14,760 nucleotides of DNA, taken from NCBI GenBank assembly GCA_040752395.1, contig JBFMHD010000057.1:1-14760 (forward strand), read 5' to 3'. The notes beneath the pieces were generated by a model that did no database searches, was not told the DNA's origin, and saw only the letters and a list, made by a program, of their open reading frames with translations. The position numbers and the translations under genes were made by a program. Positions within the stretch are counted from its first letter, which is position 1. The number at the start of each line of letters is the position of its first letter. Shown here piece by piece: positions 191-14,472 of this stretch. Source of the stretch: JBFMHD01 sp040752395 [NCBI: Candidatus Hydrogenedentota bacterium]. Its GTDB lineage: Bacteria > JBFMHD01.

Positions 191-3100
191 TTATTGTCTG
201 AGCGTTAATATTTCTTGCAGAACCTGGTCTGCTACACGTATGACACGCGAATTAGCCTGGAACCCACGCTGGGTTATGATTAAATCTACAAACTCATAAG
301 ATAAATCTACATTTGAGTTCTCTAAAGAACCAGGCGCGATCGAACCTCTACCATCATTACCCGGAATCCCTATCCTTGCTTGACCGCTGTTAACTGTCTC
401 AACATACATATTCTGACCCTCAGATAAAAGACCCGAAGGATTATTAAACGCAGCTAACGCAACCCTTGCTAAATCCATACTATGACCATTCGAGTATAAC
501 CCTGTTACATAACCATTCTCATTAAACGCGAACGAGGTCAATCTGCCTGCTTGGAACCCGTTCTGATAATAAACCTGGGCATCTGAATCACCCTCATTCT
601 GTATAACACCATTAAGCGCAATATTATCCATTGGTATCTTTACTACATCAGCGCCTGCTTCTGGCGGAGGAGCACCCTCAGTGGTAGCAGATTCATAAGG
701 CGGGTCAAAATAAATACCCTTGTAACCTACTGTCGCAGAGTTACCATCTGTTGTTAATGGGTCTGCTGGTGACTCAAATACAACTGAATTCGATGAATCA
801 TAAACGCCGTCTTCATCAAACGCAAGGATACCCATGCCAGCGGTTCGTGGATTCGTAGTTGACGGGTCAGTTGGGTCCGGGACACTCCATAACCATTTGT
901 TCTGACTCAACCTCTCAAACGTTATTCTCAGGTTGTGTGCAACACCAAGTGAATCATACACTTCTACTGTGGTAACATGCTGATAATCCTGTGAGTCATT
1001 TAATGTTGCAGATACCGGCGAACCGCTATCAGCCCGATTCGGCGTAGCACTCGATGTATTTGGCGTAAAACTTAAAGCTTCTGCTTCTTTATCACCCGAA
1101 CCATCTATCGTTCCATTCGGTATTATAATATCTACTCTGCCATCATAAGCATAAGTTTCGATCTTAACCGAGTATCCGTCACCGAGCTGTGGGAAATTCT
1201 GTGGATAATCTGCATTGTTTACCCAGGTACCACCACGCGTGTCAAGTAATGCGAACTCGCCGTCCTCAGCATCAGGCACACTTATAATTGTCCATCTCCC
1301 GGGATCAATCTCGTGTTCATAACTAACAACTGGTTTTATACCACTTGTAACATCCTGAGAGATTGTTAATTGTGCTGAAAGCGAATACGTTACCTGAACC
1401 ACAGCACCACCTGCTATATCATCAGCAAACGCTAACTCAGCTCTGCCATTTGCAACCGCATTACTTGAACGATTTGTCACCTTAAAATAATTGCCACTCA
1501 TAGTTGTTATATCGGTGCTTGGAGATAATTGGGTATATTCTCTACCATTTACAAAAACTCTTATATCATAAAGTGTACTATCCTGGGGGCTAATCCCAAG
1601 TTGCCGCTGCTGCAGTGAAGAACTACCATCAGCAAATCGTGGGTTCTGTGGGAACGCTATATATAAACCATCTACATTAGTACCACCACCAGCTGTATTA
1701 TCAAATCGCTGGTCACCACCACCAGCTGTTGCTATCCTTGATTCTGTATCACCTATTAATACTATATCTCCTGGATCAGAGACAAAGAACTGTCTGTTAG
1801 CTTCATTTAACGAAGCCTTGGAGGTAAGCTGTGTATAATTGTTGCCATCAATAAATACGTTCACATCATATTGTGGTGTCGCAGTTGTTGAGATATCTAC
1901 TAAATTACCATAATCAAGTATGAGTAAATTCTTTTCAGGTGTTCCTGAGGTATCCATATCAGGAGAATCACTTATTTCACTGTCTGATACAACTTCACTG
2001 CTTTTTTCATTTGTAAACATGATTGCCGGGCCTGAATTATAATTACCATTAACCGAACCAAATGAATAAGAAATATCTATCTGTGTTGGTACAGTTGCAC
2101 CTGCATCTTGCCAGAGAGGTATGTCTTGATTAAATATTACCTCTCCTTTTGCTGAATCTACATAGTACTGTAAAGCAGCGCCAGTGCCTGTTGCTGTAAA
2201 CCCTGATTGTGAAGCTGTTCCTGGCGGGTTTACCTGTGTACCAGTTACACCATTAACTTGTACAGTGATACTAAATTTAGTCGGGTCATTAGAATTAGGA
2301 ATTATATTTTTACCTCGTAGCTGGACCGCATCAAGATAGTTACCCCCACCATACGGTGAATTAAACATACCACCAACATACGTTGTATAAGTACCAGCTG
2401 CTTCTGTCCTTACATATGAATTAGTTGCGTCACCACCAGCCCAGTCTATCATCGAGGTCGAAGCACCAACTGTATCATCAAAATCATCAGTTCCTTTGAA
2501 CCCAACCTCATCTGCTTCATCTACCGTAGCATCACTATCATCATCAACACCATCAACACCATCCTCGTCAACTGTGTCATCATCAGATCCAGCAAAATCT
2601 ATTTCTGTAAAATCATCTGTTGTTCCATTAACATCATCATCTACCCCGACGTTACCAGGCCCACCATCAGCACCAACCATAGAATGCGCCAAACTTACAT
2701 CATTAGTATCATTTACTCCTGCACTTGAAATAGTAATGTTGTGAGATACTCTACCAGGTGTTGCACCACCAGCACCGTTTATAATAACTGTTTCAGTAGC
2801 TTGTGTTACAACCGGGATATAAGTATCTAACCAATTTTCAGATGGTGGTGCATCAGGAAGAGTTATAATATTTCCGCTGATCTTTGAAGCTTCTTCAAAA
2901 GTTACTGAGATATTTGAAGGATCTGAAACAGAATTTCCTTTTGCATCTTTTGTTAAACCTATTGTAAAATAGTCATTCGCTCCGTTTGGGCCTGAAGTTA
3001 AACCACGTGCATTGCCATAATCATTTGCTGCATCTGTTGTTGATGTATAATCCGGTATCTCATCTGTATGCTCCAATATACCGTTCTCAACACCTTCGCC

Positions 3101-3928
3101 ACTACCATCTGTATCTATCCAGTGCCCCACTACTTTACCTGAAGAATCAAGTTTCAAAATACCTCTGATCGATATGCCTGAACCAATAAGCCCATCAGAT
3201 TGATGAGTAGCTACTTTCCATTGACCTGTACTAGCATCTTTCTGATAAGCTGTGTACCTGTAATAAGGCTTTGTTGGACTCATATGCTCAAACCGTATCT
3301 GTACCTCTTCTGTTACATTATTTTTCGTAAACGATACGGTGATCGGTTCAATAGCAAGTTGTTGAGAAGCATTTAAATTACCTCTTAATTTGATCTGACT
3401 GGTTGCCTGTGCCTCAAGCACACGTCCCAACTCAATATGAAGACTTTCAACTGGCTGTGTATGATCTACAATAAAGGTATTTGTTATAGTGCTCCTTGTT
3501 GCGTTCCAGCCCTGCAATCTGTAACCGTTTGACGGATTAACAAGATACCCATCTCTATCAAGCTCAAAATTGCCAGCCCTAGTATAGAAATTACCTGAAT
3601 CCGTACCATTCTTGAGTATGAAGAAACCATCACCCTGAATAGCGATATCAGTATTTTTGTTAGTAATCTCCAGGGATCCTTGAGAGAAATCGCGGCAGAT
3701 AGAAGATATGCCCTGACCTAATCCGATCTGCCTCGGGTTTTGACCACCTTTGTCATCTTCAGGAGCAGTGGCAATGCGTGTGGTCTGACTGAAGATGTCT
3801 TCAAACCGTACCCGGCTATTTTTATAAGCTGTGGTATTAACGTTAGCGATGTTATTTGAGATAACATCAAGTCGGGTCTCGTGGTTCTGTAAACTCGAGA
3901 TACCCGTAAAAAGTGAGCGAATGACCAT
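191..3928 (-). CDS. flgE: Flagellar hook protein FlgE, very large paralog (copy 2)
   Basis: Hook structural subunit, exported by the flagellar type III system and polymerised under the FlgD cap. The N-terminus (about residues 1-145) has the rod/hook signature with SNNIANVNT near 24-32, then GDGFFIL near 99-105 and FYTRAGNFELDRDGYLV. The C-terminus (about 1120-1245) has the FlgE ending with SNVDLSYEFVDLIITQRGFQ and an amphipathic last helix. At 1245 aa it is about three times the usual FlgE length. The middle contains an Asp-rich stretch (about 428-488) and three copies of a module with a YDVxVFxxGxxYTQL core or related ends (about 550-624, 684-727, 781-850). The start is ATG with a strong AGAGGAGG 8-9 bases upstream, 20 bp after the preceding gene's stop. 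It is the last gene of the operon visible here. FlgE family assignment is firm; why it is so large is unknown. Confidence 0.95.
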   Translation of the reverse strand: MVIRSLFTGISSLQNHETRLDVISNNIANVNTTAYKNSRVRFEDIFSQTTRIATAPEDDKGGQNPRQIGLGQGISSICRDFSQGSLEITNKNTDIAIQGDGFFILKNGTDSGNFYTRAGNFELDRDGYLVNPSNGYRLQGWNATRSTITNTFIVDHTQPVESLHIELGRVLEAQATSQIKLRGNLNASQQLAIEPITVSFTKNNVTEEVQIRFEHMSPTKPYYRYTAYQKDASTGQWKVATHQSDGLIGSGISIRGILKLDSSGKVVGHWIDTDGSGEGVENGILEHTDEIPDYTSTTDAANDYGNARGLTSGPNGANDYFTIGLTKDAKGNSVSDPSNISVTFEEASKISGNIITLPDAPPSENWLDTYIPVVTQATETVIINGAGGATPGRVSHNITISSAGVNDTNDVSLAHSMVGADGGPGNVGVDDDVNGTTDDFTEIDFAGSDDDTVDEDGVDGVDDDSDATVDEADEVGFKGTDDFDDTVGASTSMIDWAGGDATNSYVRTEAAGTYTTYVGGMFNSPYGGGNYLDAVQLRGKNIIPNSNDPTKFSITVQVNGVTGTQVNPPGTASQSGFTATGTGAALQYYVDSAKGEVIFNQDIPLWQDAGATVPTQIDISYSFGSVNGNYNSGPAIMFTNEKSSEVVSDSEISDSPDMDTSGTPEKNLLILDYGNLVDISTTATPQYDVNVFIDGNNYTQLTSKASLNEANRQFFVSDPGDIVLIGDTESRIATAGGGDQRFDNTAGGGTNVDGLYIAFPQNPRFADGSSSLQQRQLGISPQDSTLYDIRVFVNGREYTQLSPSTDITTMSGNYFKVTNRSSNAVANGRAELAFADDIAGGAVVQVTYSLSAQLTISQDVTSGIKPVVSYEHEIDPGRWTIISVPDAEDGEFALLDTRGGTWVNNADYPQNFPQLGDGYSVKIETYAYDGRVDIIIPNGTIDGSGDKEAEALSFTPNTSSATPNRADSGSPVSATLNDSQDYQHVTTVEVYDSLGVAHNLRITFERLSQNKWLWSVPDPTDPSTTNPRTAGMGILAFDEDGVYDSSNSVVFESPADPLTTDGNSATVGYKGIYFDPPYESATTEGAPPPEAGADVVKIPMDNIALNGVIQNEGDSDAQVYYQNGFQAGRLTSFAFNENGYVTGLYSNGHSMDLARVALAAFNNPSGLLSEGQNMYVETVNSGQARIGIPGNDGRGSIAPGSLENSNVDLSYEFVDLIITQRGFQANSRVIRVADQVLQEILTLRQ
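2465..2647 (-). other. Asp-rich, possibly calcium-binding insert in FlgE copy 2
   Basis: Residues about 428-488 contain 22 Asp and several Glu in about 60 positions, with stretches such as GVDDDVNGTTDDF, GSDDDTVDEDGVDGVDDD and SDATVDEADE. The pattern resembles degenerate thrombospondin-3/dockerin-like DxDxDG calcium loops, although a perfect loop is not present. In the DNA it appears as CAT/ATC-rich short repeats on the plus strand. The calcium role is an inference from composition. Confidence 0.55.
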
Positions 3929-3948
3929 AAAAAACCTCCTCTGAAAAG

Positions 3949-4398
3949 TTAGTGGTTCGTAATAATAACCCCAAACTCCGAGCTCCGAACCCCGAGCTCC
4001 GAACTTCGAATAATTGCTGAATCTATGTTCGTAAAAATGTTGTCCTTCATACTTTGTATATCCATAGCAGTAACAACTGTGCTGTTCGGTAAATTTACTA
4101 TAAACCCTACCCTCTCAAGTATTATCAAACTCTCTCTGCAATGTTTACTTTCAGCTTTGCTAATAGCATCTAATAAAGATAATATCTCTTTATCTGTTAA
4201 TTTGATGCCGCGTGAATATAGCCTTTTCAAAGAATGAGCAGAAAACTTTAGATCACCTGCCTGCTCAATAGCTTTACCAAGTACCTCGCTAAAACTTAAA
4301 TCAGATATAAGTAACGGCTTTACATCTTTACTTGAACCTACTTTTAAATCTATCTCTTTAAATTCAATCTTCTTTAATCGCAAATCCGAATAATTCAT
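3949..4398 (-). CDS. TIGR02530-type flagellar operon protein
   Basis: A small cytoplasmic-looking protein (149 aa) of the family that sits beside flgD/flgE in many flagellar operons and whose precise role is not settled. Family hallmarks are LKFSAHSLKRLYSRGIKLT (about 50-68), a central helix, ESLIILERVGFIVNLPNSTVV, and the NIFTNIDSAII ending (about 120-130). The normal family end lies at about residue 130. The last 19 residues (131-149, starting RSSELGVRSSEFGV) are encoded by a tandem repeat of intergenic type and are probably a late extension. It starts 15 bp after fliK, with a weak AGGGTGG ribosome site, and ends 20 bp before flgE copy 2, so it is surely co-transcribed with them. Confidence 0.85.
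   Translation of the reverse strand: MNYSDLRLKKIEFKEIDLKVGSSKDVKPLLISDLSFSEVLGKAIEQAGDLKFSAHSLKRLYSRGIKLTDKEILSLLDAISKAESKHCRESLIILERVGFIVNLPNSTVVTAMDIQSMKDNIFTNIDSAIIRSSELGVRSSEFGVIITNH
3970..4010. repeat. Tandem repeat CCGAGCTCCGAAC inside a gene's 3' end
   Basis: Two exact 13-bp copies of CCGAGCTCCGAAC (3978-3990 and 3992-4004) sit in a longer run of related CCGAA/CTCCG units. The run encodes the odd C-terminal tail of the TIGR02530-type protein. Confidence 0.85.
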
Positions 4399-4413
4399 TG
4401 TCCACCCTGTTTT

Positions 4414-6285
4414 CTATGCTAAATAATTCAACTCTGTTGCGAGCCAGCTTGGTTGAACATCATTCTTAAGATCACTACCAGTTGTTTCTTCTGCTTCTTC
4501 AATAACATTGCCGTAATAATCATAGCCTCCTCCATCTTCGTATGTGAACCCCTGTTCTTTATCACCAGGGTAATTCTCTGAAAAAGCCATTAATTCAAAA
4601 TTCTCAACATCGATATTCATTTCTTTTAATGTCTTTTTCAATTCATCAAGTTCATCTTTTATAGCATTCATCACCAGATTATTTTCTATATAAATTTTTG
4701 CAGTAAGTTTGCTGTCTTTTAACTCGAGCTGTAGCTCAAGTCTTCCCAGAAACTCGGGTTTCAGCTTCAAACTCATACTCGAGACCTCGTCTTTTAATAC
4801 AACCCTTGCCTGCTGGATTATCTGGTCCATAATCTGTTTGGTATTCAGTGTCTGATTGGTATTGTTCTGGGTTAAATTTCTTGTTTGGTTCGCATTATTC
4901 ATATTAGATTTATCATTTTTAGATGAAAAATTCGAGAGCATATTATCATTACTATTATTTTTTATGTTTTTTATTGATAAATCTATGTCTACTGGTTTAT
5001 CTGTTTGCGCGATGTTAGCTTTTTGAAATCTTACTCCTCTTAAATCTTCGATTAAAAAGACTTTTTGAGGATTTTCATTTTCGGTCTTTGGTCTGAATTT
5101 TTCAGTATCTATCTCTATTTTAAACTCTTTATTAATATTAAGCCTCTCATCTCTTTTAATAGACTTATCTTCTTTGATTTGTAAATCCTCTATCTGTTTT
5201 TTTGTAATCTTCCGTTGTTTTGAGGTATCGTCTTCAAGTTTAGTTTCGTATTTTTCAATTGTGCCTCTATTTTCATTTTTCTCTTCTTTTGTTTTTCTAC
5301 TAATCTTTACTTCTTTATCCTTTGTTGTAATTTTAGCGGTGTTTTCATCATCCTGTTTTTCAGTCAGGATATCCCTGTTACTATCAATATTCTCTTTTTT
5401 ATTTATTATCTCTCTTGTCTTTTTAATTAGCTGGTAGAAGTTTGATTCTCTAATATCTCTTTCCTTGTTCTCGCTTTGTTTTATCTCAACCTTGATCTCT
5501 AATTTATTATTGTTTTTTTCTTCGATTACTTTTTGAACAATGTTATTATCTTTAATAAAATCTATTATATTATTAAGTTCAGCAATAATTACGGCCCACT
5601 CATTAATGTCATCAACATTTTTTATCTCTTTTTTCTGAACAAGTTCTAACAATTCCTTTAATTCCATCCCTCTGTCTTTGAAAAACTTGAGCAGTTCCTC
5701 GATATCTTTTTTATCAATCTTTTTTTCTTTAATGAGTGCGATAAGATTTTTTATCAATTTTTCTAAATCTTTAATCTCTTTTTCAACCTCTTTATCTTTT
5801 GATTGATTTTTGTTTTCTTTTTCTTTGGTTTTTACATTTTTCTCATCTTTATTATGAATCTCCTGTTTTGCATCAGATTCATTGATCTGTTCCTGTTCGC
5901 TATTCCCCTCTTTTCTTTTGTCCTTTTCTACCTTATTTTCTGATACATTGTACTTGTATTCATCGCCCTGGATTTTATCTGGTTCAATCTTTTTATTTTC
6001 TTCTTTATACTCTTTGCTATTTAAATTAGTTTGTTTTACTTCAGCCATATAAGAAACTCTATCTTTTTCTGTATCAGATTTTATCTCAATTTTTTCAATC
6101 TTTACTGGTTGGTTCTGTTTTAATATTTCGCATCCGGCAAAAATGTTCTCGAGCACAGCATTAAATCTCTCGTTCAGGAAGATTTTGAACTTTGATTCAG
6201 GATTCCAAGATTTAATCTTTTCATTTTTTAGCTCTTTTTCTCCACTAATTTTATTTAACGCAACTAAATCATTTTTTGTTACCAT
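4414..6285 (-). CDS. fliK: Flagellar hook-length control protein FliK
   Basis: FliK is secreted during hook growth, measures hook length and triggers the export switch from hook to filament substrates. The C-terminal Flg_hook domain is clear at about 487-565: VSSMSLKLKPEFLGRLELQL, then LTAKIYIENNLVMNAIKDEL and LKKTLKEMNIDVENFEL. Residues about 60-400 are extraordinarily rich in Lys and Glu and are probably largely helical (leucine-bearing heptad-like pattern about 165-255). An Asn-rich linker (about 440-485) precedes the domain. At 623 aa it is longer than many FliK proteins, which matters if it acts as a ruler. The start ATG follows AGAGGAG with good spacing. The coding strand is strikingly A-rich compared with flgE. 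Long A-runs in it remain in frame. Assignment rests on the C-terminal domain and operon position. Confidence 0.93.
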   Translation of the reverse strand: MVTKNDLVALNKISGEKELKNEKIKSWNPESKFKIFLNERFNAVLENIFAGCEILKQNQPVKIEKIEIKSDTEKDRVSYMAEVKQTNLNSKEYKEENKKIEPDKIQGDEYKYNVSENKVEKDKRKEGNSEQEQINESDAKQEIHNKDEKNVKTKEKENKNQSKDKEVEKEIKDLEKLIKNLIALIKEKKIDKKDIEELLKFFKDRGMELKELLELVQKKEIKNVDDINEWAVIIAELNNIIDFIKDNNIVQKVIEEKNNNKLEIKVEIKQSENKERDIRESNFYQLIKKTREIINKKENIDSNRDILTEKQDDENTAKITTKDKEVKISRKTKEEKNENRGTIEKYETKLEDDTSKQRKITKKQIEDLQIKEDKSIKRDERLNINKEFKIEIDTEKFRPKTENENPQKVFLIEDLRGVRFQKANIAQTDKPVDIDLSIKNIKNNSNDNMLSNFSSKNDKSNMNNANQTRNLTQNNTNQTLNTKQIMDQIIQQARVVLKDEVSSMSLKLKPEFLGRLELQLELKDSKLTAKIYIENNLVMNAIKDELDELKKTLKEMNIDVENFELMAFSENYPGDKEQGFTYEDGGGYDYYGNVIEEAEETTGSDLKNDVQPSWLATELNYLA

Positions 6286-6311
6286 ATAAATCTCCTCTGA
6301 AAAACATTGTA

Positions 6312-6341
6312 ATTATAATAATTCGGGGTACCAGAAGCCAA
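6312..6341 (-). promoter_or_regulatory. Candidate sigma-70-type promoter before fliK
   Basis: On the minus strand, TTGGCT (6336-6341) and a perfect TATAAT (6312-6317) are 18 bp apart, in the 69-bp gap between flgE copy 1 and fliK. Transcription would start just upstream of the fliK AGAGGAG site. Four of six -35 bases match the consensus. It would let fliK and flgE copy 2 be expressed apart from flgD and flgE copy 1. In AT-rich DNA a TATAAT can occur by chance. Confidence 0.4.
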
Positions 6342-6354
6342 CATATCAACTTCT

Positions 6355-9300
6355 CTACCGTTTCATCTCTATAGCGATCCGTGTCATATCATCTGATGCT
6401 CTGACTATTCGCGAGCTTGCCTGGAACCCACGTTGCGCACGAATCATATCAACAAACTCTTTTGCTAAACTCACATTCGAGGCTTCAAGTGAATACGCTA
6501 AAACACTGCCAGCACCATCAACCCCGGGAACAGAAATAGTGGTCTTCTTACCCGCATTTAACGAATCACTAAACATATTCTTCTCTATAAAATGTAAAGC
6601 CTTTGGATTTGTAAATTCCTGTAACATCACCTGAGCAAGAATCGCACTCTTACCATTATCAAACATACCCGTAATTTTACCCTGATCCCCAAATTCGATG
6701 TTCAAGAGATTCCCGGTTGCAAACCCGTCAAGATATCCTATATCAAGATCGCTCGGGCCACCATTCTGAATCGTTTGTATGTTTCCTGCCTCATCAGTAT
6801 ATGAAAGCGTTATGTTTAAAGCTTGAGCACCCTCAGGTGTCCAGCCTAAAGCTGTGTATATAATACTGTTTTCTGCATCATATAGACCATTCTTATCAAA
6901 AGCTAATATCCCATAACCTGCAGGCGTATTTGTTCTGTATTTTATCTCCGCTGTTGCCTCAGCATCAATATCTCTCGAAAACGCAATCTCACCTGTTGTC
7001 GGGTCAGTTACAATGAAATAATTCGTATCTGCTCCTGTTTGCGGGAATGCGCTTACCTGCGTAAACTCAACTGTGCTATTATCCTCAGTTATTTTTATTG
7101 TCACATCATAAAGATTGTTATTTAAATCTTTAACTCTTAAATCGCCTTGTGGTAAAGTTAAGCCGTCTCGTGTTGTACCACCACCTGCAGGATTGTCCTC
7201 TATCGGCGCACTCGTAAAAGTTGCTTTATATATAGGAGAAATTGTGTATAGATATCTGTTCTGACTTAATCTCTGGTACTCAAAAGTAATATCATGTTTA
7301 TTACCAACCGAATCATAAATCGTCGTACTGAACCCATAAGTATAATCAATCGAGTCTTTTAGAGAACCGTTTCCTTCCATGTTCGTTGCTATAACCGCAA
7401 GGTTACCAAGCTCATATTCGAACCCACCATTAAATCCTGAAGGATAAGATACTATGGTAAAACTTTCGCCACCAGTTGTTGCCTGTAATCTAACATAAAC
7501 ATCTTGACCTGCTTGAACTAAAGTAGCTGTTAAACCTTCTATACCATCCTGCGGATCATTAACTAAATTTACAAAATCCTGAACCGAGCTATTCACAGGA
7601 ACAGTAATCTCATCAGCACTACTATCATTAAAGATTACAGAGAACTTTTCAGCATTTAATGGCGTAATAATATCAGTTGCCTGGTCAAAAATCTTATTCG
7701 ATACTGCGCTGTCTCTTAACCCTTCATCTGTTTTAGCCTTGATTATAAAATCTTCGGCTAATAAGTCCTGCGAATGATCTGGTTGATACTTTTTTTGGAC
7801 ACCATTCGGTATCAATACATCAACCCCATTTATAGTGTAGAAATCATAACCATCAACAGTATGACTCGGATTAATAATCCCGAACCTGTCATTATCTGTT
7901 GGATTTTCATTAGCACTTAAATCTATGAATTCATCCGTACCAGTTGTGTCTCTATAATGAGCTTTTATTTTACCTTCTTCATTGATTTCAATTAAGCCCG
8001 CTATACTTAAACCCGTATCATCATTTTGTATTTTAGTATTATTTTCGTATGCTTCATATCTATAAATATTTTTTGCAGGATGAACCCTTTTAAACCTGAA
8101 CTCAAGCTCTGAGACTTCAACACCTGAAGTAAAACCACTTGAGATCGATTCATCAGTGTCCGAAGTGTTCGGGTCATTAAATTTAGCTTTAAATGCACGT
8201 GGAAAAATCGGGATTGAAGTTATAGAAATAGATGATTCATCTGGTGTTAGTTGAAGATAATACCGGCCATCATCTTCTAAAATATCAGCTGAAAGATACG
8301 GTATCCCTGATGTATCATCATTGATTAAATCAACCAGTCCTTGAAGTGTTGTACCTTCGGGAATCGTAATCGTTCTTGAAACACCGTTTGAAAATGTAAC
8401 TTTTAATTGTTCTTCTTCATTAGGTATGTAGCCTTCAGTAAAACCACCTAAACTCGACGGCGATTCATAAACCTGATATACTGCTTTGTTATTCGGATCT
8501 TGTGGGATAAGCTGTAAATAGTATCTATTATTATCTGGATCAAGATAAGCAGATGCTATCACATCTATAGATTGAGTGTTTATTAAATCCACAACCTGCT
8601 GTAATGTCATCCCTGGATTAATAACAAATGTCTCAAGATCATTATCACTGTATCTTATTGATAATTTCTCAGCACTACTAGAAGCAGGCACAACCTCACT
8701 TGTCAATAACTCAAGACTGGCAATGGATTGAACAGGCCAGGGATTAGGAGTGATAACAGTTGCCGGGTCATCAAAATACCTGTTTGACGTTACATTGATA
8801 GCTCTCTCATATTGAATACTTATCGGGTTGATTGGGGTCTCTGCTTCTGCATTAAGGTTTCCTTGCAATCTTATAATAGTTGTAGGTTGACCAGGAAGCA
8901 CAGTCGGTAAATCAGTTATATTCTCAAGTGTGGTTCCCTGAATCTCATATTGGCCCGAGCTTGTATTATACGTAGCAATAACGCCCTGCACAAAATATCC
9001 GTTTTCTGCATTAACAAGCGTCATATCCGCATCAAAAACAAAATCACCTGCACGCGTGTAAAGATAGTTGCCGGGTGAATATGGGTCACTTAATATAAAA
9101 TAGCCGTTTCCAAGTATCGCAATATTTGTAGAGATATCCGTGTGCTCAATATTCCCCTGTTTCAAATCCCTTATAATACTGGCAACCACAGTGCCTTTGC
9201 CTTTCTGGATCGGGTTTCTACCTGCTCTGTTTCCTTCTTCTTCAGTAGCAGGTTTCAGTGTCTCAGTAAATACCTCGGCAAATTTTACATCAGACCTTTT

Positions 9301-9405
9301 GAATCCAACAGTATTAGCATTTGCAACATTGTTTGAGACAGTATCAAGAAAAGTCTGGTGATTTAAAAGCGAGCCTTTTGCAAGCCAGATAGAACTAAAT
9401 GACAT
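6355..9405 (-). CDS. flgE: Flagellar hook protein FlgE, large paralog (copy 1)
   Basis: Hook subunit with intact ends: SNNVANANTVGFK near 24-36, ILGNGYFILSD near 97-107, YTRAGDFVFDADMTLVN, and a C-terminal EASNVSLAKEFVDMIRAQRG near 974-993. At 1016 aa it is more than twice the usual length. The middle carries three copies of a module of about 70 aa resembling the flagellin hook IN motif (about 245-313, 331-399, 585-655), each with a TLQxxVDLIN-like helix and a YYLQL-like strand. It also has one copy (about 757-824) of a module shared with the other FlgE. FlgD-adjacent position suggests it is the first hook subunit made. It ends with TAG. The ribosome site before its ATG is weak (GGAAAC), and a 215-bp gap separates it from flgD. 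No cysteine is present. Confidence 0.95.
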   Translation of the reverse strand: MSFSSIWLAKGSLLNHQTFLDTVSNNVANANTVGFKRSDVKFAEVFTETLKPATEEEGNRAGRNPIQKGKGTVVASIIRDLKQGNIEHTDISTNIAILGNGYFILSDPYSPGNYLYTRAGDFVFDADMTLVNAENGYFVQGVIATYNTSSGQYEIQGTTLENITDLPTVLPGQPTTIIRLQGNLNAEAETPINPISIQYERAINVTSNRYFDDPATVITPNPWPVQSIASLELLTSEVVPASSSAEKLSIRYSDNDLETFVINPGMTLQQVVDLINTQSIDVIASAYLDPDNNRYYLQLIPQDPNNKAVYQVYESPSSLGGFTEGYIPNEEEQLKVTFSNGVSRTITIPEGTTLQGLVDLINDDTSGIPYLSADILEDDGRYYLQLTPDESSISITSIPIFPRAFKAKFNDPNTSDTDESISSGFTSGVEVSELEFRFKRVHPAKNIYRYEAYENNTKIQNDDTGLSIAGLIEINEEGKIKAHYRDTTGTDEFIDLSANENPTDNDRFGIINPSHTVDGYDFYTINGVDVLIPNGVQKKYQPDHSQDLLAEDFIIKAKTDEGLRDSAVSNKIFDQATDIITPLNAEKFSVIFNDSSADEITVPVNSSVQDFVNLVNDPQDGIEGLTATLVQAGQDVYVRLQATTGGESFTIVSYPSGFNGGFEYELGNLAVIATNMEGNGSLKDSIDYTYGFSTTIYDSVGNKHDITFEYQRLSQNRYLYTISPIYKATFTSAPIEDNPAGGGTTRDGLTLPQGDLRVKDLNNNLYDVTIKITEDNSTVEFTQVSAFPQTGADTNYFIVTDPTTGEIAFSRDIDAEATAEIKYRTNTPAGYGILAFDKNGLYDAENSIIYTALGWTPEGAQALNITLSYTDEAGNIQTIQNGGPSDLDIGYLDGFATGNLLNIEFGDQGKITGMFDNGKSAILAQVMLQEFTNPKALHFIEKNMFSDSLNAGKKTTISVPGVDGAGSVLAYSLEASNVSLAKEFVDMIRAQRGFQASSRIVRASDDMTRIAIEMKR
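7441..8673 (-). repeat. Three repeated ~70-aa IN-motif-like modules in FlgE copy 1
   Basis: Segments encoded at 8467-8673, 8209-8415 and 7441-7653 align by eye. Each has an E-[KQ]-[LF]-x-V/I-x-F/Y opening, a TI/TV-x-[PV]-x-x-[TS]-[TLV]-Q stretch, then [VF]-[DN]-L-[IV]-N, an L-x-A segment and Y-[YV]-x-[QR]-L. The first two are adjacent and the third is separate. The pattern matches my recollection of the flagellin hook IN motif (PF07196) found in FliD and flagellins. Confidence 0.7.
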
Positions 9406-9620: not shown

Positions 9621-10061
9621 TTACTGTGAATCAAGCGGATTTAATAATACCTGCGTTACGTTTTCAATCGGTATCTCAACAATTGTATTATCATTCTGTC
9701 TGAGACTGACATAGGGTTTATTTTCTTGGTATCTAACACTTGTAGCGATCCCTGTGATTTTCGCCCCCTCACTATCAACGCCCTCAACGATTTTCCCAAG
9801 CATCGAAACAACAGAAGTCGTATTTATTGCGATAAGCATCTGCTCGAATTTTTTGTTAAGGTTTGTCATCTGCTCTAAAGACGAGAACTGAGCCAGTTCT
9901 GCGATGAACTCTTTGTCATTCTTCGGTTCAAGCGGGTCTTGATGTTTGAGTTCTGCTACAAGCAGTTTCAAAAACGCATCCTGACCCAGAGTCTTTTGGA
10001 TCGCCTCAGTAGCCTTTGTCTCTGTTCTATTATTTATACTTGAGCTTATTGATGCTACCAT
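9621..10061 (-). CDS. flgD: Flagellar hook capping protein FlgD (short form)
   Basis: FlgD forms the scaffold cap on which FlgE assembles and is itself lost when the hook is finished. The conserved N-terminal domain covers about residues 25-70, with LGQDAFLKLLVAELKHQDPL followed by the ELAQFSSLEQM motif. Residues 85-146 form a small beta domain (MLGKIVEG...GIATSVRY...VEIPIENVTQVL). At 146 aa it is the short form lacking the extended C-terminal part, as in Bacillus-type FlgD. ATG is preceded by AGGAGAGAG (10065-10073) with 7-bp spacing. It is the first gene of the minus-strand hook operon, and a sigma-28-like promoter lies just upstream. Confidence 0.95.
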   Translation of the reverse strand: MVASISSSINNRTETKATEAIQKTLGQDAFLKLLVAELKHQDPLEPKNDKEFIAELAQFSSLEQMTNLNKKFEQMLIAINTTSVVSMLGKIVEGVDSEGAKITGIATSVRYQENKPYVSLRQNDNTIVEIPIENVTQVLLNPLDSQ

Positions 10062-10188: not shown

Positions 10189-10264
10189 GGCACAAAGGCA
10201 CAAAGTTTTTTTGAGGCTTTTTATATCCCTTTGTACCTCTTTCCCCTTTGTCACTTTGTAACCC
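10189..10264. repeat. Inverted arrangement of GGCACAAA / CTTTGT repeats
   Basis: Two exact GGCACAAA octamers (10189-10204) are followed by CCCTTTGT, CCCCTTTGT and CACTTTGT units in the opposite orientation (about 10227-10264). They belong to the same family as the octamers at 132-155. Confidence 0.7.
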
Positions 10265-11571: not shown

Positions 11572-11603
11572 AAAACTATATTATTAAAGTAACCGGAGTT
11601 TCT

Positions 11604-11666
11604 TTATCTTGCTTCTTGCCTCTTGCATCTTTTTTCTGATACTTCCCACTTCTTCTCCACCTACAC
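11604..11666. repeat. CTTGCxTCTT low-complexity repeat
   Basis: Units CTTGCTTCTTGCCTCTTGCA followed by a T-run and CTTCCCACTTCTTCTCC. It is related to the CTTGTTTCTTGCATCTTGCA array at 13381-13413 and, inverted, to 157-180. Confidence 0.65.
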
Positions 11667-11850: not shown

Positions 11851-13296
11851 TTATACCTTTATTCTGACCGTATATTTAACAACGACCTCCTGGTCTTTAG
11901 GTACAGGCACGTTAAACTCTACAGTGTTGACATCTTTTTTTTCAAAATCATGAGTTTTATCTATCACTTTCCAATCACCATAAATATGTTCAATAACAGT
12001 TACTATCACATCTTCTTTTTTATGGTTACGGAGTTTTACCTCAAACGACATTTCATACGTATGAGATGGTACAACCACTTTATAGTTTGTTTGTCTCCGT
12101 TCTCCTACAATATCAAATGCATTTCCAATATTTATCCGAAATTTTTCATCTTTTGGTGTATGGTCAATTTCATCTTCACCTATAAACTGTAAAGATTTAT
12201 CATCATCAGATTTATAAACTCTTATTTTCCCTTTAGGGAGAGGCAACCCAAGATGATTCTCTTTGCTGTTTTTCACTTCCAGCATAACCTTAATTTTCTT
12301 TGATTGTTTGTCCTGAGAATTGAACCAGTAGTAAAGAGGCTCGTTTTCATAAATAAATCTTTTTACGACTGAAACACCTACAGACTCAAGTAATGTCATC
12401 TGTTTGGTTTCATTATCCTTAATAGTAGTACGTCTTCCCAAGGTGTACATATGATATTCAAAAAACGATTTTTCTTCAAACTGAGGTTCCCTTCCTATTT
12501 TTCCCTCAGCAGCATACAATCTATACCCTATATTCTTTGGGGTGGGGGGCTCTACTCTATGAACATCACCAGCGATAAGTTTAAGTTTAGCATTTTTATA
12601 AGTAGCTCCGCTTTTATTATCCAGAGTTACCCAGCCTGTTAAATCAACATTTTTATCATTTTCATCTATAACAGTAACATAATCACATTTCCAGTTAATG
12701 CCATTAGTTAAATAAGAGACTTCAATTTTTTGTTCTGTTTCAACATCACTTTTTACAAGCCATCTAAGAGTCGGTTTAGCTATTAAATTTTCTGGTATTT
12801 TGGGAAGCACCACTCTGCCCGGATAGCCTATACTAATTTTATCGCCAATCTTATATATAGCACCGCCATTAAGAGAAATTAGAGTAGCTTTTGTCACCTT
12901 CTCTTCAGGCACATCCTTCACCATCTGGATTTCATATAGTTCCACTTCTTTATTTAAATATTTTTCCATTAACTTATTTGGATTAAGCAAATCATACTCA
13001 TAATTCTGTTCCATGATAGATACTGCATTTGGGTTTGAGAAAGATTTAAAACTTACTGAAGTCGGGTCTATTTGAGACGCAACATCACTAAACTCTACTT
13101 CATTATTATCTTTAGCAAGTTTTATTTTTCTTATCTCCCGTACAAGTCCTAGGTTACTATTATAAATAGTAATAAAAATATCCTGCTGGTCATCAAGAGT
13201 TGACTTAACTTTAAATTCTTCAGCAATTGCTGGCCCAAACGCCTGTCCTACAAATAATACAATAAATATTACAGCCAAAATAATCTCTTTACGCAT
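11851..13296 (-). CDS. Secreted DUF4139-domain protein
   Basis: A protein of unknown function exported by the Sec pathway. I chose the ATG at 13296 (481 aa) over the longer open frame from 13362 because it has a strong AAGGAGGG (13303-13310) and begins MRKEIILAVIFIVLFVGQAF, a signal peptide with likely cleavage after AIA (residue 25). The extra upstream codons translate intergenic repeat DNA. Residues about 40-180 form an N-terminal beta-rich half. The DUF4139 half (about 190-481) shows YLTNGINWKCDYVTVID, LTGWVTLDNKSGATYKNAKL with LIAGDV, LPLPKGKIRVYKSD and a W-containing VEFNVPVPKDQEVVVKYTVR end. No membrane anchor follows, so it is probably periplasmic or cell-surface. It lies 81 bp after the oxidoreductase; whether they share a transcript is unclear. 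Confidence 0.85.
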   Translation of the reverse strand: MRKEIILAVIFIVLFVGQAFGPAIAEEFKVKSTLDDQQDIFITIYNSNLGLVREIRKIKLAKDNNEVEFSDVASQIDPTSVSFKSFSNPNAVSIMEQNYEYDLLNPNKLMEKYLNKEVELYEIQMVKDVPEEKVTKATLISLNGGAIYKIGDKISIGYPGRVVLPKIPENLIAKPTLRWLVKSDVETEQKIEVSYLTNGINWKCDYVTVIDENDKNVDLTGWVTLDNKSGATYKNAKLKLIAGDVHRVEPPTPKNIGYRLYAAEGKIGREPQFEEKSFFEYHMYTLGRRTTIKDNETKQMTLLESVGVSVVKRFIYENEPLYYWFNSQDKQSKKIKVMLEVKNSKENHLGLPLPKGKIRVYKSDDDKSLQFIGEDEIDHTPKDEKFRINIGNAFDIVGERRQTNYKVVVPSHTYEMSFEVKLRNHKKEDVIVTVIEHIYGDWKVIDKTHDFEKKDVNTVEFNVPVPKDQEVVVKYTVRIKV

Positions 13297-13377
13297 AATT
13301 AAACCCTCCTTATTCCTGTTTTTCCATTTTGCATTTTTTGATGTGTACCTCAAGGTACCCATTTCGGTAGAGTTTTT
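13297..13377. other. 81-bp gap between oxidoreductase and DUF4139 gene
   Basis: It holds the strong AAGGAGGG of the DUF4139 gene, an ATTTTGCATTTTTTGA low-complexity run, and a GTACCT-CA-AGGTAC inverted repeat (about 13343-13356). I see no clear promoter. The repeat run makes the open reading frame appear to start 66 bp too early. Confidence 0.5.
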
Positions 13378-14472
13378 TTATCTTGTTTCTTGCATCTTGC
13401 ATCTTTCGTTATCTTTCTTTTTGCCTAATTTTGAATATATTGACTTAAACTTTAAAAATACCTCCTTGCCTGATTCCGCTGACTCGTATATAGTATTAAT
13501 AAGCTCTAAGGATTTCCTTGCTTCTATACCATCTATAAGCGCTTTTCTGTTATCCTTTATACTTGAAAGAATGTTTAAATAAAATTGTTTATGATTATAA
13601 GCAAACTCGTCCGGGTTCTTACCCCATTCTTTGAAAACAATCTCGTCTTCTTCTTCTTCCTTCTCAAACTGCCATATCTTTAAATTATCGGTCGCAAACC
13701 CACCAATCTCAACACTGCCTCTTTCACCCAATATACTTAATGAACCCTCTATATCTTTAGGTCTTGTTGCAGTAGTGGCTTCTATAACACCTAAAGCACC
13801 GTTCTCAAATCTGAGTATAGCGACCCCTGTATCTTCGCACTCAATCGGTGCTAATCGCGTAGTAGTGTATGCTTTAACACTTAAAACATCACCCATCAGC
13901 CAGCCGAGTAAATCGATATGATGTGCAGCCTGATTGGTGATTACACCGCCATCCATAGCCCATGTCCCACGCCACGATGCGGATTTATAATAATCATCTC
14001 TTCTGCACCATCTCACCCTTACCGTACCAAGAACAAGTTTACCAAACCTGCCAGATTCAATAGCTCTTCTTAATGCAAGAACAGGCTTGTTAAACCTGTT
14101 CTGTTTTACTACAAAAATTCTTGTAGAGTTCTTATCACAAACCCTTATTAAGTCATCTGCATCTTTTAATGTTAATGCTAATGGTTTCTCAATAATAAGG
14201 TTTCTAACATAGGGAGAGACATTAATCCCTATCTCAGAATGCGTACCACTCGGCGTTAAGATACAGACGATATCAAGTTTCTCATTATTAACCATTTCTA
14301 TGTAATCTTTATAACATTTAAGTTCTGGTCTTTCTCTATTAAATTTTTCAAAGAGTGACGTATTTAGATCAGATAATGCTATGAGTCCCAACTCTTTAAT
14401 ACTATTTATTACAGCAAGATGCTTTTTAAATATCGTACCGCAACCTATAACACCAACTCTCAATCTCTCCAT
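13378..14472 (-). CDS. Gfo/Idh/MocA-family NAD(P)-dependent oxidoreductase
   Basis: A cytoplasmic dehydrogenase of the family that acts on sugars and nucleotide sugars, often for surface polysaccharide synthesis. The start used is ATG 14472 (364 aa), with GGAG 6 bp upstream; a TTG four codons earlier is less likely. The Rossmann dinucleotide motif is RVGVIGCGTIFKKH near residues 5-18. The family EKP lysine motif (IIEKPLAL) is near 95-97. The catalytic region, DGGVITNQAAHHIDLLGWLM, is near 174-193, with the conserved His and Asp. The C-terminal beta domain has GALGVIEATTATRP and LGERGSVEIGG. The final 18 residues (347-364, ending DNERCKMQETR) are translated CTTGCATCTT-type repeat DNA. It starts 24 bp after the upstream membrane-protein gene, suggesting an operon. 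The exact substrate cannot be read from sequence. Confidence 0.9.
   Translation of the reverse strand: MERLRVGVIGCGTIFKKHLAVINSIKELGLIALSDLNTSLFEKFNRERPELKCYKDYIEMVNNEKLDIVCILTPSGTHSEIGINVSPYVRNLIIEKPLALTLKDADDLIRVCDKNSTRIFVVKQNRFNKPVLALRRAIESGRFGKLVLGTVRVRWCRRDDYYKSASWRGTWAMDGGVITNQAAHHIDLLGWLMGDVLSVKAYTTTRLAPIECEDTGVAILRFENGALGVIEATTATRPKDIEGSLSILGERGSVEIGGFATDNLKIWQFEKEEEEDEIVFKEWGKNPDEFAYNHKQFYLNILSSIKDNRKALIDGIEARKSLELINTIYESAESGKEVFLKFKSIYSKLGKKKDNERCKMQETR
13381..13420. repeat. CTTGCATCTT repeat inside the oxidoreductase 3' end
   Basis: Units CTTGTTTCTTGCATCTTGCA and ATCTTTCGTTATCTTTCTTT. The 12-mer TCTTTCGTTATC (13402-13413) is the exact inverse of 167-178. It encodes the last residues of the oxidoreductase. 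Confidence 0.75.

What the first reader, a model, noticed from the sequence alone, without database searches (positions are those of the whole stretch)
191..9405. Two giant FlgE hook paralogs in one operon, flanking FliK
FlgE normally occurs once and is about 260-450 aa. Here two divergent copies of 1016 and 1245 aa, both with intact rod/hook termini, lie in one operon on either side of fliK and the TIGR02530-type gene. Together they suggest a hook made of two subunits, a sheathed or decorated hook, or alternative hooks. The inserts would lie on the outer surface of the hook.
Basis: partly seen in the sequence, partly recalled or inferred. Interest (0 to 1): 0.7.

Follow-up and report, generated by a model that had tools for sequence, protein, structure and literature searches.

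The report
Two giant hook proteins, one operon
A bacterium of unknown kind carries two very large, different copies of the protein that builds the flagellum's flexible joint, close together in one gene block, and similar doublings turn up in other bacteria, which suggests that some hooks may be built from two proteins rather than one.

Summary
A five-gene minus-strand block, flgD-flgE1-fliK-TIGR02530-flgE2, encodes two intact hook-family proteins of 1016 and 1245 aa. Both have rod/hook termini, the D1 domain and the FlgE-specific D2 domain, and their modelled cores match solved hooks. In three trees they are sisters among FlgE (95-99% bootstrap), but AU tests do not exclude other placements of fast-evolving FlgE1. 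They share two accessory domains found in no other ORF collected here. FlgE1 also has three repeats resembling the flagellin/FliD 'IN' domain.

Size is unusual, not unique. Doubling is rare but recurrent: in a phylum taken to be Synergistota, 11 of 101 genomes with a FlgE_D2 match have more than one FlgE, nine with two as direct neighbours, one copy reaching 1487 aa. Both copies are under purifying selection in three pair groups. I favour in-operon duplication with both products entering one hook. Campylobacter jejuni, with two hook genes but one protein in the purified hook, warns that this is unproven. The window's organism and close relatives were not found.

The parts
9621..10061 (-). flgD, hook cap/scaffold protein, 146 aa, first gene of the block
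   Evidence: PF03963 83.9 bits
6355..9405 (-). flgE1, divergent hook-family protein, 1016 aa, 111 kDa, pI 4.3
8452..8742 (-). FlgE1 residues 222-318: first Flagellin_IN-like repeat
   Evidence: similar to the second repeat, z 14.3; model residues 225-318 match FliD D2 and V. cholerae flagellin outer domains, Z 7.3-8.4
8176..8424 (-). FlgE1 residues 328-410: second Flagellin_IN-like repeat
   Evidence: PF07196 23.9 bits, cut-off 22.7, on a 221-aa fragment; not listed for the whole protein at E<=0.01
7426..7674 (-). FlgE1 residues 578-660: third Flagellin_IN-like repeat
   Evidence: z 13.9 to the second repeat, 4.4 to the first; no Pfam match on its own fragment
7906..8163 (-). FlgE1 residues 415-500: accessory domain shared with FlgE2 ('D2a')
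   Evidence: z 22.8 to FlgE2 190-285, 0 of 200 shuffles as high
6916..7200 (-). FlgE1 residues 736-830: accessory domain 'X', inserted inside D2
   Evidence: z 7.6, 4.0 and 11.9 to the three FlgE2 stretches; the 4.0 is hardly above chance pairs of the same table
4414..6285 (-). fliK, hook-length control protein, 623 aa
   Evidence: PF02120 50.4 bits at 492-564; purine-rich site GAGGAGA before ATG
3949..4398 (-). TIGR02530-family flagellar gene, 149 aa
   Evidence: 100 bits, cut-off 83.2; PF12611
191..3928 (-). flgE2, slower-evolving hook protein in the usual place after TIGR02530, 1245 aa, 133 kDa, pI 4.2
   Evidence: AGGAGG site before ATG
3074..3361 (-). FlgE2 residues 190-285: shared domain 'D2a'
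2399..2671 (-). FlgE2 residues 420-510: Asp-rich stretch (25 Asp in residues 420-500)
1364..2371 (-). FlgE2 residues 520-855: three stretches taken as copies of domain 'X' (520-625, 655-740, 745-855)
   Evidence: first to third z 4.8 (1 of 200 shuffles as high), second to third z 8.1; first to second not above z 3
554..1021 (-). FlgE2 residues 970-1125: FlgE_D2 domain
   Evidence: PF07559 55.2 bits

Best explanation
The hook block (usually fliK-flgD-TIGR02530-flgE in the loci read that have TIGR02530) was duplicated or extended in this lineage, leaving flgD-flgE1-fliK-TIGR02530-flgE2. FlgE2 kept the usual place and a conserved core and is probably the main hook subunit; FlgE1 diverged faster. 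Both keep the D0, D1 and D2 parts of a hook subunit, so the likely course is: both are exported by the flagellar export gate before the FliK switch, both polymerise on the rod under the FlgD cap, and one hook is built of two subunit types (mixed, or in successive segments), with large acidic inserts on its outer face. Shown: genes, domain content, cores, sister position within FlgE as the best tree, shared accessory domains, recurrence of pairs elsewhere. Inferred: co-expression, export, co-assembly, which copy dominates, surface role.
For: Intact ORFs with all four hook-family domains. Modelled cores match hooks: FlgE1 Z 27.2, rmsd 2.5, 391 of 401 residues of 6k9q; FlgE2 Z 24.9, rmsd 3.8, 327 residues. 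Of 47 FlgE columns conserved at 90% or more in 74 references, FlgE2 keeps 45 and FlgE1 37; references: median 46, lowest 24. Sister support 95/91, 97/96, 99/95 (the bootstrap had not settled). Shared domains D2a and X, with no hit to either profile among the other collected ORFs at E<=1. FAEVF and FEDIF at residues 42-46 correspond, by eye, to FADMF at 39-43 of E. coli FlgE (sequences); that this is the export-gate motif FxxxF is recalled. Tandem pairs recur in a phylum taken as Synergistota: 11 of 101 genomes with a match have more than one FlgE, with dN/dS 0.09-0.28 for both copies in three pair groups.
Against: C. jejuni has two hook genes but a purified hook of one product (PMC5069557). 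AU tests do not reject FlgE1 grouping with Synergistota FlgE (p 0.32) or with FlgG (p 0.35). FlgE1 lacks 10 of 47 conserved columns and its start has no obvious strong ribosome-binding site. No close relative of the window was found, so selection on these two genes could not be measured, and the rest of the genome is unseen. Neither protein reaches the NCBIfam FlgE equivalog cut-offs. In the Synergistota pairs one copy is usually small, unlike here.
Confidence: 0.48

Rival explanations
1. Campylobacter-like arrangement: FlgE2 alone builds the hook; FlgE1, next to flgD, is a minor or accessory product (a few copies at the rod-hook or hook-filament end, an assembly factor, or hardly used).
For: C. 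jejuni precedent (PMC5069557). FlgE1 branch 1.22-1.68 against 0.34-0.42 for FlgE2. FlgE1 next to flgD; weak start signal.
Against: FlgE1 keeps all hook domains including D2 and 37 of 47 conserved columns. No special affinity to the second epsilon FlgE model NF004495: 77.8 bits, cut-off 857.
Confidence: 0.27
2. Alternative hooks: the two genes are used under different conditions, each making its own hook.
For: A gap of 215 bases without a gene lies between flgD and flgE1, so a separate promoter is possible. R. leguminosarum has two FlgE, one needed for colonising all five plants and the other for one (PMC11103875, passage seen).
Against: In the window a single fliK, flgD and TIGR02530 gene serve both, in one direction (the rest of the genome is unseen); promoter-like matches in the window are no more than in shuffles (38 against a mean of 53.3).
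Confidence: 0.1
3. FlgE1 is a redundant duplicate on its way to decay.
For: Long branch and loss of 10 of 47 conserved columns.
Against: 1016 codons without a stop, organised domain repeats, confident core model; in Synergistota both copies of such pairs are kept under purifying selection.
Confidence: 0.1
4. FlgE1 is another rod/hook family member (FlgG, FlgF, FlgK).
For: An AU test does not reject FlgE1 with the three FlgG-like rows (p 0.35).
Against: FlgE_D2 present (27.5 bits, cut-off 22.7); best FlgE model 231 bits against 169 for the best FlgG, 132 for FlgF and 42 for FlgK models; inside the FlgE clade, 100/98; shared D2a and X domains with FlgE2.
Confidence: 0.03

Closest known systems
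Campylobacter jejuni FlgE (Cj1729c, 865 aa) and the second hook gene Cj0043; H. pylori FlgE2 (PDB 5npy)
   Same: Two divergent FlgE genes in one genome (C. jejuni); large extra domains; both window cores match 5jxl, 5az4 and 5npy.
   Different: Here both copies exceed 1000 aa and sit in one block; no affinity to the second-epsilon-FlgE model; in C. jejuni only one product was found in the purified hook (PMC5069557, passages).
   Same: Two flgE genes next to or around flgD; one copy can exceed 900 aa; in the six long Synergistota proteins scanned (five from pairs, one single) the extra length lies between D1 and D2.
   Different: In the nine neighbour pairs one small copy (431-509 aa where complete) plus one large; no TIGR02530 gene recognised by BLAST in these loci; inserts give no hit to the D2a, X or IN profiles; separate clade in the tree.
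Giant flagellins (PMC6248924, passages seen)
   Same: Insert growth of an axial flagellar protein, described as convergent in many phyla, Synergistetes among them.
   Different: Those are filament, not hook, proteins.
Rhizobium leguminosarum FlgE1/FlgE2 (PMC11103875) and two genes named flgE in Bdellovibrio (PMC2277423); passages seen
   Same: Two genes named flgE in one genome.
   Different: By their locus numbers they lie apart, not in one block; one of the Bdellovibrio genes is tabled as a basal-body rod protein.

Membership tests
FlgE hook protein (both copies) | Flg_bb_rod N-terminus, D1 domain and Flg_bbr_C C-terminus | tested here: met
   All over Pfam cut-offs for both
FlgE hook protein (both copies) | FlgE-specific D2 domain (PF07559) | tested here: met
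   FlgE2 55.2 bits, FlgE1 27.5 bits, cut-off 22.7
FlgE hook protein (both copies) | Hook-subunit fold of the core | tested here: met
   Z 27.2 and 24.9 to hook 6k9q; FlgE2 was modelled without its first 45 residues, so its N-terminal helix was not tested
FlgE hook protein (FlgE2) | Place inside the FlgE clade, away from FlgG and FlgF | tested here: met
   100/98; not contradicted
FlgE hook protein (FlgE1) | Place inside the FlgE clade, away from FlgG and FlgF | tested here: inconclusive
   With FlgE2 among FlgE in all three trees, but AU p 0.35 for grouping with FlgG-like rows
FlgE hook protein (both copies) | Presence in the assembled hook | not testable with these tools
   Needs proteomics or cryo-EM
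NCBIfam FlgE equivalog models (naming thresholds) | Whole-protein score over the cut-off | tested here: not met
   Best NF004241: 413.3 and 231.2 bits against 469; the broader TIGR03506 cut-off 70.25 is met by both
Second FlgE of epsilonproteobacteria (taken to be model NF004495; label recalled) | Score over the cut-off 857 | tested here: not met
   105.2 and 77.8 bits
Flagellin_IN domain (PF07196) in FlgE1, second repeat | Score over the cut-off 22.7 | tested here: met
   23.9 bits on a 221-aa fragment; not listed for the whole protein at E<=0.01
Flagellin_IN domain (PF07196) in FlgE1, first and third repeats | Score over the cut-off 22.7 | tested here: inconclusive
   No separate match; resemblance to the second repeat only

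The most novel reading that the evidence does not exclude
Two-protein hooks are a recurrent, selected solution: several unrelated bacterial lineages (the window's, at least four times in Synergistota, one Bacillota genome) doubled flgE within or beside the hook block and build one hook from two subunit types whose large outer domains, in FlgE1 including flagellin/cap-type IN repeats, give the joint a decorated surface.
Probability: 0.33. Interest if true: 0.75.

Novelty: new variant of a known kind. Interest (0 to 1): 0.55.

Why it matters
The hook is described as about 120 copies of a single protein (PMC5069557, passage seen). If tandem FlgE pairs are co-assembled, the universal joint of some flagella is a heteropolymer, and FliK length control and FlgD capping must serve two subunits. 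The Synergistota pairs, kept under purifying selection in several genomes, make that directly testable in an isolate.

Tried and rejected
Close relatives: the genome-contig scan with FlgE1 found none; viral-contig scans with FlgD, FlgE2 and a FlgE alignment found none. The window's phylum stays unknown: the DUF4139 neighbour matched 12 of 38 genomes, best 51% in the phylum of G008 (taken as Armatimonadota) and 49% in that of G017 (taken as Latescibacterota), which does not place it. Protein searches of plasmid records with FlgE1, FlgE2 and the two neighbours gave only hits under 60% identity.

D2a profile: 0 of 291 and 0 of 64 genomes in those two phyla; without a positive control this shows little. 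X and D2a profiles hit no other collected ORF at E<=1. The IN profile hits a few FlgE weakly, best E 0.0007. Segment borders were chosen by eye, and unrelated pairs there reach z 3.9, so z of about 4 is weak.

FlgE2 insert: model under pLDDT 50 over most of residues 270-980, so no fold is claimed; in the rows shown no match outside the core exceeds Z 4.0, which excludes nothing. Regulatory scan: promoter-like and terminator-like counts not above shuffles. Rfam and tRNA: nothing. The last genome search listed genomes already seen and added nothing.

The PF07559 surveys undercount: Desulfosporosinus genomes with a FlgE-like ORF beside flgD have no PF07559 match (G007, G013).

Papers: ten searches. 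'FlgE + Synergistetes' listed 5 papers, of which I saw passages of one; 'two hook proteins' with FlgE listed 0; 'tandem duplication' with four other terms listed 0. In what I saw no report of tandem FlgE pairs appeared; most subscription papers are not in that library. Passages of PMC11187230 and PMC11974857 were seen and not used.

Full report
WHAT IS THERE. The minus strand carries, in order of transcription, flgD (9621-10061), flgE1 (6355-9405, 1016 aa), fliK (4414-6285, 623 aa), a TIGR02530 gene (3949-4398) and flgE2 (191-3928, 1245 aa). FlgE2 and FliK start behind strong purine-rich sites; flgE1 does not, and lies 215 bases behind flgD. Both FlgE proteins pass Pfam cut-offs for all four hook-family domains and score best against FlgE models, though below the FlgE equivalog cut-offs, with the broader TIGR03506 cut-off met. 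They are 42% identical over an N-terminal stretch of 203 columns and 36% over a C-terminal stretch of 217. No whole genome is held for the window, so what else the organism carries is unseen.

CORES AND INSERTS. The AlphaFold model of FlgE1 has a confident core (D1 and D2 mostly above pLDDT 80) and moderate or poor inserts (mean of the whole 65.0); the core aligns with the Salmonella hook 6k9q over 391 of 401 residues, Z 27.2, rmsd 2.5. For FlgE2 (residues 46-1245) the core is confident, the insert is not (mean of the whole 50.4); core Z 24.9, 327 residues. Inserts lie between D1 and D2 and, in FlgE1, also inside D2. FlgE1 has three repeats resembling Flagellin_IN: one passes the Pfam cut-off on a fragment, the repeats resemble each other (z 14.3, 13.9, 4.4), and residues 225-318 of the model match FliD D2 and V. 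cholerae flagellin outer domains at Z 7.3-8.4, values that the tool itself calls middling; Foldseek lists one FliD (6iwy) at E 0.003. Two further domains are shared by the two proteins: D2a (z 22.8) and X (one copy in FlgE1, three stretches in FlgE2; z 4.0 to 11.9, the lowest hardly above chance). X sits inside D2 in FlgE1 and before D2 in FlgE2, so domains have moved. Neither profile hit any other collected ORF at E<=1. Both inserts are acidic.

DESCENT. In trees from the conserved ends (100, 84 and 72 rows; 271, 270 and 272 columns) the two window proteins are sisters (95/91, 97/96, 99/95) among FlgE, and FlgE1 has the longer branch (1.22-1.68 against 0.34-0.42). The bootstrap had not settled. 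For one search I left out a list of very long rows, FlgF-like short rows and three in four of the rows of 456, 463 or 467 aa (mostly spirochaetes); for I picked 39 reference rows by hand, one of which (L007) was missing, and three rows are under half filled. AU tests do not reject FlgE1 with Synergistota FlgE (p 0.32) or with the FlgG-like rows (p 0.35), so the sister relation rests on bootstrap and on the shared domains.

NEIGHBOURS ELSEWHERE. Of 84 loci read (80 from the FlgD scan, 4 from plasmid records), none held two FlgE-like ORFs of 380 aa or more; the usual order is fliK-flgD-(TIGR02530)-flgE; a number of loci are cut by contig ends, and four (L010, L019, L024, L068) show no FlgE-sized ORF. 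Surveys with PF07559 (phylum names inferred from locus titles, since the tool names none; they miss FlgE without a recognisable D2): 14 of 20 genomes behind loci, one each; 21 of 64 Latescibacterota, one each; 186 of 198 Spirochaetota, one genome with two, on two contigs; 1 of 288 in the phylum of a Lentisphaerales genome; 119 of 199 Bacillota, eight with two rows, of which seven are pieces of one frame and one (G885) has two genes of 522 and 831 aa on opposite strands; 101 of 149 Synergistota, 11 with two or three rows, in separate frames. Armatimonadota were searched with the FlgE2 protein instead (71 of 121; match listing truncated), where I saw no second FlgE-sized frame in the rows shown.

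SYNERGISTOTA PAIRS. Reading the 11: nine have two genes as direct neighbours on one strand (G1136, G1106, G1087, G1139, G1159, G1164, G1197, G1194, G1133; in G1159, G1164 and G1133 one of the two is cut by the contig end); in G1167 and G1137 flgD lies between the two. G1167 has a third copy on another contig; the third place of G1164 is probably the other half of its cut small copy. In the nine neighbour pairs complete small copies measure 431-509 aa and complete large ones 655-1487; the large copy is first in G1136/G1106 and second in the other seven (in G1133 the second is cut, and is called large by its place in the tree). All 30 Synergistota rows form one clade (100/99), in which copies group so that at least four doublings are the simplest reading; one of the groups concerned is weakly supported (83/68). 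Copies compared between genomes give dN/dS of 0.09, 0.15 and 0.28 (small) and 0.21, 0.13, 0.21 and 0.24 (large), with dS of 0.5-1.6; the inserts alone give 0.25, 0.17 and 0.21, and in a fourth comparison are saturated. Both copies of such pairs are maintained. This is the strongest evidence that paired hook proteins are useful; it is indirect for the window.

HOW IT PROBABLY WORKS. Two hook subunits with intact assembly parts beside one FliK and one FlgD: the simplest reading is one hook with two subunit types and a decorated surface. The C. jejuni case, where two hook genes exist but the purified hook holds only FlgE2 (PMC5069557, passages), keeps the rival alive. A packing estimate from recalled dimensions gives hooks of 24-32 nm.

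VERDICT. Real, unusual, not unprecedented: new variant of a known kind. The pair is confirmed; the two-protein hook is plausible and untested.

Noticed in passing
window 3967-4010: The C-terminal tail of the TIGR02530 ORF (RSSELGVRSSEFGV) is encoded by a short tandem repeat that looks like intergenic repeat DNA read through into the gene.
   Followed up: no
window 10213-10249, 11596-11632, 13370-13406; inverted at 157-178: A dispersed repeat of about 37 bases upstream of the block, part of it (20-22 bases) inverted downstream of flgE2.
   Followed up: no
window 11851-13362: DUF4139 protein; 12 of 38 genomes searched had a match, best 51% in one genome of the phylum of G008 and 49% in one of the phylum of G017.
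   Followed up: partly
L144 5712-7100 (G1167), L140 6237-7604 (G1137): Divergent FlgE of 462 and 455 aa that form their own deep branch within the Synergistota clade.
   Followed up: partly
L112 1312-3777 (G139): FlgE of 821 aa with an extreme end branch of 5.4 in the tree.
   Followed up: no
L060 2946-6812; L126 921-4424: Very long FliK-like ORFs of 1288 and 1167 aa beside FlgE of about 700 aa.
   Followed up: no
L150 7078-9744 (G990): A Bacillota FlgE of 888 aa with a weak Flagellin_IN match (16.4 bits, below the cut-off), so IN-like domains in hook proteins may recur.
   Followed up: no
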